From Chitinivibrio alkaliphilus ACht1 (GTDB taxonomy: Bacteria > Fibrobacterota > Chitinivibrionia > Chitinivibrionales > Chitinivibrionaceae): 64,000 bases of DNA. The first letter of the stretch is position 1; each line of letters starts with the position of its first letter. A program made the translations under genes and the position numbers. The notes below the pieces were generated by a model. The model did not search any database, was not told where the DNA came from, and was given only the letters and a program-made list of their open reading frames with translations. The stretch spans positions 1-64,000 of the forward strand of contig NZ_ASJR01000002.1 of assembly GCF_000474745.1 (NCBI RefSeq), in the 5' to 3' direction. Shown here one piece after another: positions 1-4,408 of the stretch.

Positions 1-2992
1 TCTCAACGTACTTCCCTGAAAAGTCCTCGAACGCATTTGTGACGGCGAACTCAACCTCTTTGCCCAGAGCTTTGAAGTGTTCCTTGCCGCATGCGATCTT
101 GGCTTTTTCAGTTGGGCGTAGCGCATCGGTGAATAAGGTGCTTTTGGTCTCAACAACAAAGTAAAGCTTCTCTTTGCCATCCACCTCAATCAATACAGCC
201 CAGTCCGGGTTATAGGTGCCCAGAGGCGTGTCGATTTTGAACCAGTCCGGGAGCTTGGCGTATAGCTTGATGTCATCGCTTCGTTCAAAAGCAGTGGCGA
301 ACTCCAGCTCCACGTCGGAATCGTAGACCACATGGTCAAAGACTGACTTCTGGCTTTCAACCATGTTCTTCTGTAGATAGCCAAACAGCTCGTTATCGCT
401 GAACAGTTCCTGAGCGTAAAAATGTTCATCCCCGATCTTGTGATACTTAATCCCGTCGACTACAAAGAGACGCATCTGGTGCTGGATGATGGTCGATACC
501 TGCTCGATGAACTTCTGCGGGTTGTTTTTAAAGGACTCAAGGCGGCCACTGTCGTTGATAATCTTAACAATAGTCCGGCGGGTCAGGTTGGTTTCATTCT
601 GGAGGTAAGTGATCAGATCCGGGAGCTCGAAAGATCGTGACTCGTAGACACTGGCTGTTTCCTGAACCTGCTCTGCGTGAACACCACCACGATCAATCTC
701 GGCCTTGGCTTTTCGATAAATAAACCTGGCCTTGCCCACCTGCAGATTGCCTTTAATCTCTTCAGCGCATTTTGCGGCAAGTGTCTCTACATCAAAATCG
801 ACTCTAAAAGTGGTCTTGTATTTGATCCGGTCCCAAAGCTCTTTGAACTCCGGACTTAAAAATACGGATTTATTCAGCGACACCTTTTTCTTGTCGTCAC
901 GGTTCTTGATATTGAGATTGCCGGAAACTTTCTTCAGCACCGCAGCAATATGCGGGGCTTGTTCTTTGAATTCCTCCGGCAGCTCAAGCTCACCACTTTT
1001 TAGGGCAGTCTTTAAGGAGTCCTGCACCTTGCCTTTGGTATCAATGTAACCAGTGGTTTTCAGGTGATCCCAAAGCTTCTTGGAAGCATCGACTCCAAGG
1101 TGTTCATTGTTGTAGTCGTCAACCGGAACAACGATGTTGGCAAACAGGTGCTCTTCAACCACTCCGAATTTAATACCTTCTTCCTGCTCAATCTCTTTCT
1201 GGAGCTGTTCGGCAAATTTTTCATAGGATTCATTTGCCATGACGGTAAGCGTGTTGACCTCAAACCCGTGAACGCGCTCACCATCCTGATTGACACAGAT
1301 TCGAAGACCACGGCCAATTTCCTGACGTTTTTTAATAACCGAATTGGTTTCGTTGAGGGTACAGATCTGGAAGACGTTGGGATTGTCCCAGCCTTCTTTC
1401 AGTGCGGAGTGTGAGAAAATAAACTTCAGCTTTGAGTCAAAGCTGAGGAGTTTCTCCTTCTCCTTCATGATCAGGTTATAGGCGCTCTCATCGGCCAGTG
1501 TTTTCCCGGATGCATCCTTGAGCCTTGCATTTCCCGATGCATCTTTCTTTTTATCAACGGCGAAATACCCGTTATGCACACCGGCAGCAACTGTATTCAG
1601 ATCCGCCCCTTCAAAGAGGGTGCTGTATTTAGGTTTGCGGATTGCCCGGGCATACTCCTTTTCAAACATCAGAGCGAATTTGCCCTTTTGCGGATTGCCG
1701 TCTTCATCGTACCAGCGGTAGTTGGCTACCTTGTCGATGAAAAACAGGCTGAGGACCTTGATACCCTGGGGACGCAGACGCATCTCTTTATCCAGATGTT
1801 CTTCGATGGTCTTGCGGATCTGCAGGCACTTGTATTCGTCTGGGTCAACTTCGCCAATGGCCTGACCCAATTTTAAAATTTCCGGCTTACTGGTGAAGCT
1901 GATGTATTCGTTGCCTTTTTCGCAGTAGATATCCTCTATGATGTAACCATCGTAAATATCACGCCCACCACTTTTATCCAGCAAATCGTCACCGCTTTTC
2001 ACCTTAATCTTTTTACGCTTCATCGAACCGTTTTTAAGGCGACTATCAATTTCAACTTGAGCGGTAATCGGGCTTTTTTTATTGTTGACGCTCAGGAGCT
2101 TAATGTAGGCCTTGTTGTGGCCGTCTTTGACTTCAACTCCGGCAACCTCGATCTGCTTTACCAATTTCTTCTCATAGGCATCGACGGAATCCAGCTTGTA
2201 GAGCATGTGATGCTTGTCCACATGAGTAGCCGAGTAACGCAGCGTGCAGAGCGGATTAAGTGAGCGAATAGCCTCTTTACTCTTTGAGGTCGTGTCAACA
2301 CTCTGGGGTTCATCTACAATAACGATTGGGTTGGTTTCCTGAATGTATTCAATCGGCTTGGCCCCGGTCATACGGTCATGGGAACGGTGGATGATATTGG
2401 CCTTGTTTTCCTTTTCCGGATCACTGAAACTTTTTCTGAAGGCATCAATATTGATCACCATGACCTGAATATCAGGGCTGGTGGCAAAATTCCTCACATC
2501 GGAAAGCTTACTGGAGTCATAGACAAAATAGTCGAAACTGACATTCTCATAAAGCTCACGGAAATGGTCCACCGTGATTTGCAACGACTTATACACCCCT
2601 TCTTTAATGGCTATGGACGGAACAACAATGATGAATTTGGTGAAGCCGTAAAGCCGGTTCATTTCAAAGATAGAGCGCAGATAGACATAGGTTTTTCCGG
2701 TTCCGGTCTCCATCTCCACGGTAAAATCCATGGAATTCATTTTTTCGGAAGGAGCCAGCCCATTTTTCAACTGAATCTTGCGGATATTTTTGTGGATGTC
2801 CTCCGGCAGAAGTTTTAAGCGGTTACCGACACCCAGATTGTTTTCCATGCTGGGAATGACCTGCTGGGTGGTGTATTGCAGTGGAGCCACCGTAAAATTG
2901 GTCTGGCAAATTTCCTGCCCTTCAAATACCCCGGTGACTGATTCTATAGCCTGCTTCTGGAAATCCAGATTTGCGTCGAATTTAATTTTCAC
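1..2992 (-). CDS. res: Type III restriction enzyme, Res subunit (3' end cut by window edge)
   Basis: ATP-dependent restriction subunit that pairs with the Mod protein encoded just upstream to cleave unmodified DNA. An open frame of about 996 codons runs off the left edge. It starts at a GTG preceded by GAGGTG. Residues 95-101 are the Walker A ETGTGKT, 227-230 the DEPQ Walker B-type motif, and about 558-574 the helicase motif VI region (GRGLRICVNQDGERV). Near the visible C-terminus PD at 929-930 and ETK at 948-950 form the PD-(D/E)xK nuclease core seen at the end of type III Res proteins, so only a short tail should be missing. I followed the frame from 2992 to 2 and saw no break. It is the last gene of the minus-strand cluster. 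Confidence 0.93.
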   Translation of the reverse strand, partial: MKIKFDANLDFQKQAIESVTGVFEGQEICQTNFTVAPLQYTTQQVIPSMENNLGVGNRLKLLPEDIHKNIRKIQLKNGLAPSEKMNSMDFTVEMETGTGKTYVYLRSIFEMNRLYGFTKFIIVVPSIAIKEGVYKSLQITVDHFRELYENVSFDYFVYDSSKLSDVRNFATSPDIQVMVINIDAFRKSFSDPEKENKANIIHRSHDRMTGAKPIEYIQETNPIVIVDEPQSVDTTSKSKEAIRSLNPLCTLRYSATHVDKHHMLYKLDSVDAYEKKLVKQIEVAGVEVKDGHNKAYIKLLSVNNKKSPITAQVEIDSRLKNGSMKRKKIKVKSGDDLLDKSGGRDIYDGYIIEDIYCEKGNEYISFTSKPEILKLGQAIGEVDPDEYKCLQIRKTIEEHLDKEMRLRPQGIKVLSLFFIDKVANYRWYDEDGNPQKGKFALMFEKEYARAIRKPKYSTLFEGADLNTVAAGVHNGYFAVDKKKDASGNARLKDASGKTLADESAYNLIMKEKEKLLSFDSKLKFIFSHSALKEGWDNPNVFQICTLNETNSVIKKRQEIGRGLRICVNQDGERVHGFEVNTLTVMANESYEKFAEQLQKEIEQEEGIKFGVVEEHLFANIVVPVDDYNNEHLGVDASKKLWDHLKTTGYIDTKGKVQDSLKTALKSGELELPEEFKEQAPHIAAVLKKVSGNLNIKNRDDKKKVSLNKSVFLSPEFKELWDRIKYKTTFRVDFDVETLAAKCAEEIKGNLQVGKARFIYRKAKAEIDRGGVHAEQVQETASVYESRSFELPDLITYLQNETNLTRRTIVKIINDSGRLESFKNNPQKFIEQVSTIIQHQMRLFVVDGIKYHKIGDEHFYAQELFSDNELFGYLQKNMVESQKSVFDHVVYDSDVELEFATAFERSDDIKLYAKLPDWFKIDTPLGTYNPDWAVLIEVDGKEKLYFVVETKSTLFTDALRPTEKAKIACGKEHFKALGKEVEFAVTNAFEDFSGKYVE

Positions 2993-3180
2993 TTTGCACC
3001 TCTGTTTTAAGCACGGAAGACACAGAAGACACAGAAGGATTTTTTAACCACGAAAGGTTATCTATCAACATGCTCTGGTTCTTTGTTTTTATCTCTATTG
3101 CTCGCTTTTGAGTGGTATGTTCCAAAATGGAAACAACCACTTTCTCAGTGTATTCGTGTTTATTCGTGTTCATTCGTGGT
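2993..3180. repeat. Intergenic tract built from GAAGACACAG / ACACGAATAA-type repeats
   Basis: Between the YhcG-like gene and res. It holds a left block at 3009-3038 (short units ending in GAAGACACAG), an isolated AACCACGAA at 3046-3054, and a right block at 3145-3180 whose reverse complement begins ACCACGAATGAACACG and continues with ACACGAAT units. Related blocks lie at 4350-4408 and 6691-6762. The blocks face each other as imperfect inverted repeats ending in ACCACGAA or ACCACGGAA. Low-complexity repeats of this kind are scattered through many bacterial genomes. The right block also supplies the stop and the last codons of the YhcG-like gene. Confidence 0.65.
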
Positions 3181-4408
3181 GCCCTCCTTGATTCTGAACT
3201 TCCGAGGAATCCTCGTGAGTTGCTTCCCATTCTGCCTGGGCCTCTTCTAATTGTTTTTTGAGTGCTTCTTTGTCGGGAAGGTAAAGCTGATATTCAGATG
3301 CATAAATGTTGGCATTTTCAGGCAGGGTTAGCTCAACCAGTTCATCGCTTTTGGTCAGACAAAGTAAAATGCCGATGGTAGGTTTTTCGTCATCGGTTTT
3401 AACATAGCGGTCGAAGTAGTTGACATACATCTGCATCTGTCCGAGATCCTGGTGCTTCAGGTCGCCGACTTTCAGATCAATCACGACATAACAACGCAAG
3501 AGACGGTTGTAGAAAACCAGATCAACATAGAAATGGCGGTTATCAAAAGAGAACCGCTTTTGGCGAGATTCAAACAGGAAGCCTTTACCCAGCTCCAAAA
3601 GGAAATGCTCAATTTTATCAATCAATGCCGTTTCAAGATCATGCTCACTGTAGCTTTTTCGTTCTTCCAAGCCTGTAAATTCGAGAATGTATGGACTTTT
3701 AATGACATCATCTGCTTTTTCAACAAGTTGCCCATGAGTTGAAAGTTGTTTTACCTCGTTCTTGTCTCGGCTTAAGGCGAGACGCTCATACAGGGCAGAA
3801 TTGATTTGCCTTTCCAGTTCACGGTATCCCCAACCGTTCTCAGCAGCCTCCAGCTCATAGAACTGCCGCTCATCCCGGTTTTTCACTGTCAGAAGCGTCA
3901 CATAATGCGTCCAGCCGAGTACAAAGCGCTCACTCAATTTTGCAGTCATTGCCTGCAAAATGTCTGAATTGCCAATCAGCTGAAAACATTGGTCAGGCAG
4001 TGACTGACCAATGTTTGAAGATTCAACAGACGCTGCCTGTTGAATCTGAACCTGTTGAGATGATTTTGCAGGCAGTGCCTGCAAAATGTCTGAGTAGGTA
4101 ACATGAAACTTCCTGAACGAAGCTAAATTACGCTCAGAGCACCCTTTAATGCTTAATTGAAAAGCCAACTCTTTAAGTAACTGTTTGCCGTATTCAGCCC
4201 GATCTGCACCATTTTGCTCAAACTCCACGATATACCAGCCAAACAGCCAGTTGCGGACAACTAACGCAATATCCACCGACTTTGCTGCCTGGGATTGCAT
4301 GGCAGCCTGCGTCTGCTCAAACAGTCCAACTAAACCATCAAAACCCACTTTCGTGTGTTCCGTGGTTCCCTTCTTCTTTCGTGTCTTTTCGTGTTTTTCG
4401 TGGTTCAT
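3170..4408 (-). CDS. YhcG/DUF1016 family PD-(D/E)xK nuclease-domain protein
   Basis: 412 residues. An N-terminal DUF1016-type helical domain lies at about 43-105 (YGKQLLKELAFQL, SERNLASFRKFH), a linker at 107-158, and the C-terminal PD-(D/E)xK nuclease fold with D296 (FYVDLVFYN) and D311-K313 (VVIDLKVG). YhcG proteins often sit in restriction islands; their job there is not settled. The ATG at 4408 lies one base past the mod stop, with AAGGAG inside the end of mod, so translation is probably coupled. Residues 1-20 (MNHEKHEKTRKKKGTTEHTK) are encoded by a dispersed DNA repeat, and the linker by four stem-loop repeats. Both are unusual additions to the family core. Confidence 0.88.
   Translation of the reverse strand: MNHEKHEKTRKKKGTTEHTKVGFDGLVGLFEQTQAAMQSQAAKSVDIALVVRNWLFGWYIVEFEQNGADRAEYGKQLLKELAFQLSIKGCSERNLASFRKFHVTYSDILQALPAKSSQQVQIQQAASVESSNIGQSLPDQCFQLIGNSDILQAMTAKLSERFVLGWTHYVTLLTVKNRDERQFYELEAAENGWGYRELERQINSALYERLALSRDKNEVKQLSTHGQLVEKADDVIKSPYILEFTGLEERKSYSEHDLETALIDKIEHFLLELGKGFLFESRQKRFSFDNRHFYVDLVFYNRLLRCYVVIDLKVGDLKHQDLGQMQMYVNYFDRYVKTDDEKPTIGILLCLTKSDELVELTLPENANIYASEYQLYLPDKEALKKQLEEAQAEWEATHEDSSEVQNQGGHHE
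3937..4087. repeat. Four consecutive stem-loops sharing a loop core, inside the YhcG-like gene
   Basis: Four perfect inverted repeats lie in 151 bases: arms 3937-3945/3953-3961, 3984-3996/4004-4016, 4019-4029/4037-4047 and 4063-4071/4079-4087. Each has a 7-base loop. Read on the suitable strand, every unit contains CAG, then GCARYGN, then CTG. The outer arms differ (ATTTTG twice, AAACATTGGT, GATTCAA with one more pair). The last unit can also pair 12 bases around a single-base loop. All four are in the same reading phase and encode related peptides, DILQALPAK, IQQAASVES, NIGQSLPDQ and DILQAMTAK, in the linker between the two domains. Confidence 0.85.
4350..4408. repeat. Dispersed TTCGTGT-type repeat encoding the N-terminus of the YhcG-like protein
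   Basis: On the minus strand this block reads as a series of ACGAAAAACACGAA-like units starting at the ATG of the nuclease gene and encoding MNHEKHEKTR plus the following TTEHTK. It belongs to the family at 3009-3180 and 6691-6762. Confidence 0.6.

What the first reader, a model, noticed from the sequence alone, without database searches (positions are those of the whole stretch)
3937..4087. Four stem-loops with one loop core and different arms, in frame inside a nuclease gene
Seen: four perfect inverted repeats in a row, each with a 7-base loop of the form GCARYGN between CAG and CTG. Arms differ and two units share the same arms. All preserve the reading phase and encode related nine-residue peptides with a central Q[A/S]. 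They lengthen the linker between the DUF1016 domain and the nuclease. A constant loop with changing but always complementary arms suggests an element that copies or rewrites its stem, or selection on a folded DNA/RNA form. The linker may be a hypervariable region.
Basis: seen in the sequence. Interest (0 to 1): 0.76.

Follow-up and report, generated by a model that had tools for sequence, protein, structure and literature searches.

The report
Covarying DNA palindromes inside defence-associated genes
The four hairpins are real and belong to a previously unreported (in the library searched) DNA-level feature: yhcG-type nuclease genes from many bacterial phyla and some archaea, including E. coli yhcG, carry short perfect palindromes at one fixed place, whose arms change from species to species yet stay complementary, and at least three families of phage- and defence-associated DNA-binding genes do the same.

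Summary
In detail: four 25-nt palindromes (3937-4087), all in frame, and no other match to their shape in the 2.6-Mb genome. They are not a by-product of the protein. Across 102 DUF1016/YhcG genes there are 83 perfect in-frame units; synonymous codon shuffles give 0.4. The variable arm pairs are 78-97% complementary against about 30% expected, and in some genes the palindrome is read in another frame. E. coli yhcG has 1-3 units plus a non-coding copy after the stop, present even where yhcG is absent. In 3,614 of 3,686 E. coli genomes that copy has one of three perfect alleles; these differ by a two-sided arm change and a C/G flip of the centre.

The same design occurs at one codon position in RhuM, ORF6N and Bro-N genes, but not in KilA-N or HTH_25 controls. 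Arm homogenisation plus centre inversion is the published signature of replication template switching, which I think maintains the palindromes. Why only these gene families keep them is unknown; the best guess is coordinated diversification of a DNA-recognition segment, the main rival a cruciform or self-binding site. A sense-mRNA hairpin is disfavoured (no G-U excess). No paper describing this was found.

The parts
3170..4408 (-). DUF1016_N + YhcG_C (PD-(D/E)XK) nuclease gene, 412 aa
   Evidence: ORF list; Pfam PF17761 35-209 and PF06250 234-387; PADLOC phage-defence candidate PDC-S02
4063..4087 (-). palindromic unit 1 ATTTTGCAGGCACTGCCTGCAAAAT (ILQALPAKS), 12/12 pairs
4021..4045 (-). palindromic unit 2 ATTCAACAGGCAGCGTCTGTTGAAT (IQQAASVES), 10/12 pairs, arms 9/9
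3988..4012 (-). palindromic unit 3 ATTGGTCAGTCACTGCCTGACCAAT (IGQSLPDQC), 11/12 pairs, arms 9/9
3937..3961 (-). palindromic unit 4 ATTTTGCAGGCAATGACTGCAAAAT (ILQAMTAKL), 11/12 pairs, arms 9/9; the unit just before the conserved LGWTHY
3197..3221 (-). second type of palindrome (RhuM type, 10/12) near the 3' end of the same ORF, encoding 'ATHEDSSEVQ', like RhuM 'ATHKDFLLVQ'
   Evidence: RhuM units for comparison

Best explanation
The hairpins are copies of a DNA palindrome (25 nt, 1-nt centre) that sits at a fixed point in the putative DNA-recognition part of DUF1016/YhcG genes, with analogues in RhuM, ORF6N and Bro-N genes. Shown: the palindrome, not the peptide, is what is conserved; arm pairs covary; the centre toggles C/G (DUF1016) or A/T (RhuM); units multiply in frame; copies occur in other frames and in non-coding DNA. 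Inferred: the palindrome is kept perfect and re-coloured by replication strand-switching (template switching), in which one arm is copied from the other and the centre is flipped. A mutation in one arm is thus either erased or copied to both arms, changing two or three coupled residues at once. Inferred: lineages retain it because it gives coordinated in-frame variation of a DNA-recognition segment in proteins under phage conflict. The selective reason is the weakest step.
For: Codon-preserving shuffles: 83 perfect units observed, 0.4 expected. Complementarity in 145 distinct DUF1016 units: pairs -9, -8 and -7 are 113, 132 and 140 of 145, against about 43 expected if independent; pairs +-1 to +-3 also covary, which a hairpin loop cannot explain but strand copying can. 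In RhuM, pairs 3-5 and 10-12 are 58-61 of 61 against 16-43 expected. Centre base C84/G46/T9/A6 although CTG to TTG would be synonymous; eight arm sets occur with two centres, six of them C/G. Imperfect units occur as exact reverse complements: one DUF1016 pair and two RhuM pairs, the RhuM flips exchanging SKME/SILE and AKIA/AIFA. E. coli non-coding copy: 2979, 395 and 240 genomes carry three perfect alleles; no one-arm intermediate can be inferred from the mismatch bands. Arm homogenisation and spacer inversion are the published signature of template switching in coding DNA (PMC8604942). Variation is focal: two E. coli yhcG alleles are 60-70% identical over roughly nt 240-400 and mostly 95-100% identical outside it. 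In the RhuM model the palindrome encodes the first strand of the wing after the HTH.
Against: Template switching acts on any quasi-palindrome, so alone it does not explain why these families keep one at one position in most phyla sampled while KilA-N (1/21) and HTH_25 (1/25) do not. One-sided mutants do persist: the K-12-type unit 1 (CAC/GCG) is exact in 364 E. coli genomes. DUF1016_N is predicted helical and the unit region is low-confidence, so DNA contact is not shown. Neither rate nor mechanism was measured.
Confidence: 0.42

Rival explanations
1. Cis-acting DNA structure: the palindrome is a cruciform, hairpin or dyad binding site read by the encoded protein (YhcG's nuclease resembles structure-specific nucleases) or by a general factor, for self-regulation or self-marking. 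Selection on the structure keeps the arms complementary.
For: All four families carry DNA-interacting domains and the palindrome lies in the putative recognition segment. Non-coding copies and other-frame copies stay perfect. The YhcG nuclease domain is closest to NucS/EndoMS and was related to Holliday-junction-resolvase-like enzymes (PMC1189080). Neutral G.T/A.C counts in RhuM fit a two-strand DNA structure.
Against: Covariation at +-1 is not needed for a hairpin. E. coli lineages without yhcG keep a perfect copy. No upstream operator-like copies with matching arms were noticed. Variable arms exclude a simple sequence-specific operator.
Confidence: 0.3
2. Mobile in-frame palindromic elements, comparable to Rickettsia RPEs, that insert preferentially in these genes and spread as units.
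For: Unit number varies (1-3 in E. coli yhcG; up to 7 in L050). Tandem and non-coding copies occur (L090, L384, L385, L355). A RhuM-type palindrome lies in the window's DUF1016 gene.
Against: Fixed position and codon phase in most genes. No dispersal in the own genome and only 1-6 weak places per E. coli genome. Some outside copies are gene remnants (L092, L110, L118). No insertion/empty pair differing by exactly one unit was found.
Confidence: 0.15
3. RNA stem-loop in the mRNA (translation pausing, autoregulation or self-cleavage).
For: Stable stems with variable but paired arms.
Against: Sense-strand G.U is not preferred over A.C: 24 vs 90 in DUF1016, 12 vs 10 in RhuM. Loop positions covary. 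No Rfam family matched. A G.T excess on the antisense strand in DUF1016 may reflect codon and stop constraints and was not pursued.
Confidence: 0.08
4. By-product of the encoded peptide.
For: The peptide I-x-Q-T-L-S-z-w is conserved in many members.
Against: Synonymous shuffles (83 vs 0.4), other reading frames, non-coding copies, and divergent subfamilies with different peptides but still a palindrome at the same place.
Confidence: 0.02

Closest known systems
Rickettsia palindromic elements (RPE) and the Wolbachia / Methanocaldococcus coding palindromes
   Same: Palindromic DNA inside ORFs, in frame, adding a peptide, also found in non-coding DNA.
   Different: RPEs are about 100-150 nt, dispersed over many unrelated genes in one lineage (as summarised in PMC4316617). 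Here 25 nt, tied to a few gene families at one codon position across phyla, with covarying arms.
PARCEL (palindromic amphipathic repeat coding elements, DUF285)
   Same: Coding repeats with dyad symmetry whose palindromes vary in sequence; patchy, horizontally spread (PMC2996958).
   Different: A 25-aa amphipathic tandem repeat, mostly membrane or lipoproteins, imperfect dyads. Different proteins, length and position.
Quasipalindrome template-switch mutation (arm homogenisation, spacer inversion)
   Same: The same two signatures, arms copied to each other and centre inverted, in coding DNA (PMC8604942).
   Different: Described as sporadic mutation at chance inverted repeats, not as a conserved gene-family feature.
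Coding palindromes in Nematomorpha mitochondrial genes
   Same: Perfect inverted repeats kept inside functional coding sequence (PMC6649704).
   Different: Up to 284 bp, many places in conserved mitochondrial genes of one animal phylum.

Membership tests
DUF1016/YhcG nuclease (PF17761+PF06250) | Both Pfam domains above the curated cut-off | tested here: met
   94.8 and 182 bits
DUF1016/YhcG nuclease (PF17761+PF06250) | Anti-phage or nuclease activity | not testable with these tools
   Only a listing as defence candidate PDC-S02
Rickettsia palindromic element (RPE) | Length about 100-150 nt | tested here: not met
   Units are 25 nt
Rickettsia palindromic element (RPE) | Dispersed over many unrelated genes of a genome | tested here: not met
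   Own genome: pattern occurs only in this gene; a census of 454 kb found coding palindromes repeated only in DUF1016 and RhuM genes
Rickettsia palindromic element (RPE) | In-frame insertion into ORFs | tested here: met
   All four units in one phase; E. coli alleles with 1-3 units
PARCEL | 25-aa amphipathic tandem repeat (DUF285) | tested here: not met
   Units encode 9 residues; Pfam finds only PF06250 and PF17761
Template-switch quasipalindrome | Homogenised arms | tested here: met
   Arm-pair covariation
Template-switch quasipalindrome | Inversion of the spacer | tested here: met
   Centre toggles C/G or A/T; exact reverse-complement variants
Template-switch quasipalindrome | Observed mutational event from a parent sequence | not tested
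   Needs mutation-accumulation lines or dense strain phylogenies

The most novel reading that the evidence does not exclude
A self-referential DNA feature: phage- and defence-associated DNA-binding proteins (YhcG, RhuM, ORF6N, Bro-N) encode their DNA-recognition segment in a palindrome that is itself a functional DNA site, possibly bound by the protein it encodes, and that is rewritten as a unit, so that recognition residues and site change together. This would be a new kind of built-in diversity generator or self-recognition code.
Probability: 0.25. Interest if true: 0.97.

Novelty: new variant of a known kind. Interest (0 to 1): 0.85.

Why it matters
A nucleic-acid-level signal conserved inside protein-coding genes of several defence and phage protein families, from spirochaetes to archaea to E. 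coli K-12, has gone unreported as far as the library searched shows. It gives a concrete handle on these uncharacterised families (YhcG and RhuM are listed only as phage-defence candidates) and a natural, population-scale system in E. coli for studying template-switch evolution. If the palindrome is functional it points to a regulatory or diversity mechanism not yet described. It also warns that codon-level recoding of such genes may destroy something.

Tried and rejected
By-product of peptide: rejected by synonymous shuffles and frame-shifted or non-coding copies. mRNA hairpin: no sense G-U excess, Rfam silent. Antisense RNA or template-strand ssDNA: the A.C excess in DUF1016 looked striking (90 vs 24) but much of it sits at the position where the complementary base would make a TAA stop or where Lys/Glu codons differ, and RhuM shows none, so not relied on. 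A dispersed repeat in E. coli: not supported. Terminator for the E. coli 3' copy: possible, not tested. ORF6N and Bro-N were chosen as negative controls and turned out positive; KilA-N and HTH_25 then served as true negatives. A wing location was first assumed for all families; AlphaFold supports it for RhuM but predicts DUF1016_N as helical. Foldseek for RhuM gave only weak DdrC hits. PDB sequence searches were empty. A Bro-N covariation table failed because my anchor motif was wrong.

Full report
What is in the window. Window 3170-4408 (-) encodes a 412-aa protein with DUF1016_N and a YhcG-type PD-(D/E)XK nuclease domain, next to an adenine-methyltransferase-like gene and a helicase-like gene on the same strand (function judged from sequence). 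It contains four in-frame 25-nt palindromes. The pattern ATTNNNCAGN7CTGNNNAAT has exactly these four matches in the 2.59-Mb genome. The units lie inside DUF1016_N, between its helical first half and the conserved LGWTHY, not between the two domains.

Not a protein by-product. I fetched 80 homologues from many phyla and some archaea and more from pattern and family searches. Of 102 gene sequences, 93 had at least one stretch with 8 or more of 9 arm pairs somewhere in the gene; restricted to the linker signature, 69 of the 80 unbiased homologues carry units. There were 83 perfect in-frame units; permuting synonymous codons within each gene left 0.4 on average, maximum 2. The consensus is ATTnnnCAGACA-N-TGTCTGn'n'n'AAT, encoding I-x-Q-T-L/V-S-z-w, so residue x is tied to residues z and w (L with AK, A with GQ, G with DQ, P with AE or GE). 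In 145 distinct units the variable pairs are complementary in 113, 132 and 140 cases against about 43 expected from independent columns, and the inner pairs +-1 to +-3 also covary. A 168-genome scan of the phylum with the nnn left free returned 23 places in 21 genomes, nearly all with complementary nnn; the reversed control pattern returned none. Most lie in DUF1016 genes or recognisable remnants. In L108 and L109 the same palindrome is read in another frame (NLTDTVCQI). Divergent subfamilies with unrelated peptides keep a palindrome at the same place, e.g. ATTGTCGTGACGCTGTCACGACAAT on IncH plasmids and ATTGTCCAACAGGCTGTTGGACAAT in Pseudomonadota. These sequences are related by descent and the tests are not tree-corrected.

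E. coli. The chromosomal yhcG gene of E. coli, K-12 included, has the same units: one, two or three depending on the strain. Two alleles differ at 60-70% identity over roughly nucleotides 240-400, the block with the units and the preceding helix, and are mostly 95-100% identical outside it. A further copy lies just after the stop codon, outside any ORF. Among 3,686 genomes it is exactly TGC/GCA with centre G in 2,979, TGC/GCA with centre C in 395, and TCC/GGA with centre C in 240. The mismatch bands leave no room for a sizeable one-arm class; this is inferred from counts, not from reading every sequence. Strains without yhcG, such as the ST131 strain in L164, keep a perfect palindrome with other arms at the empty gltD-nanQ junction. 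One-sided mutants do exist in the coding unit: the K-12-type form is exact in 364 genomes, the perfect form in 2,524.

Other families. RhuM genes carry an analogous palindrome (consensus near AACTnTnnnnAAATTnnnnAnAGTT). Of 84 non-redundant genes 70 have 10 or more of 12 pairs in the expected segment, against 1 of 84 in a control segment of the same genes. Several use another frame (L288, L295, L298). In the AlphaFold model the palindrome encodes the first strand of the wing after the helix-turn-helix. ORF6N and Bro-N genes, picked as negative controls, also have it: palindrome within the matched domain in 26/30 and 15/30 loci, against 1/21 for KilA-N and 1/25 for HTH_25. The ORF6N palindrome encodes 'LRSQxxTS' before 'GGRRYLPYAFTEQG', and L345 has two units in tandem. 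A census of 454 kb of the own genome shows coding palindromes recurring only in DUF1016 and RhuM genes. DUF1016 and RhuM are both listed as single-gene phage-defence candidates, PDC-S02 and PDC-S05.

Mechanism. Two signatures stand out: homogenised arms and an inverting centre. The DUF1016 centre is C or G in 130 of 145 units although CTG to TTG would be silent; the same arms occur with both C and G six times; the E. coli non-coding copy toggles C/G; imperfect units occur as exact reverse complements. Homogenisation plus spacer inversion is the published signature of template switching between short inverted repeats, including in coding DNA (PMC8604942). I therefore hold template switching to be the most likely force keeping and recolouring the palindromes. 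It does not explain why these families have them; I infer retention by selection, most likely for coordinated variation of a DNA-recognition segment, with a functional cruciform or self-binding site as main rival. An mRNA hairpin would favour G-U over A-C mismatches; the counts are 24 vs 90 and 12 vs 10.

Known work. Full-text searches for DUF1016, RhuM, ORF6N or Bro-N with palindromes found no description of this. Rickettsia palindromic elements and PARCELs are the nearest coding palindromes and fail on length, dispersal or protein type. The library is open-access papers only, so an unreachable report cannot be excluded.

Verdict. The mechanism is only partly established.

Noticed in passing
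window 3197-3221: RhuM-type palindrome (AACTTCCGAGGAATCCTCGTGAGTT, 10/12) in frame near the 3' end of the DUF1016 ORF, encoding ATHEDSSEVQ, resembling RhuM ATHKDFLLVQ: a second palindrome type in the same gene or a fused gene remnant.
   Followed up: partly
window 4376-4405 and 3150-3180, also 3000-3060: Short TTCGTG / CACGAA and CACAGAAG simple repeats flank the DUF1016 gene on both sides; the gene's start (MNHEKHEKTRK) is made of one of them.
   Followed up: no
own genome contig C23, L244 about 1400-3500: A second DUF1016 gene directly downstream of a RhuM gene; its own palindrome type (AAACTGTCAGCACTGCTGACACAA) recurs about 200 nt further on in the same gene with centre C changed to G.
   Followed up: partly
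L164 (E. coli ST131 strain), 1500-1530: gltD-nanQ junction without yhcG still carries the perfect palindrome ATTCGCCAGACAGTGTCTGGCGAAT.
   Followed up: partly
L355 about 401-810; L343 1167-1265; L384 2313-2360; L385 905-952; L377 814-936: Clusters of different palindromes of the ORF6N, RhuM and DUF1016 types outside intact genes of those families (some may be gene remnants), suggesting dispersal or decay.
   Followed up: partly
L128, L131 (IncHI plasmids): DUF1016 gene overlaps a site-specific integrase gene in an apparent two-gene unit.
   Followed up: no
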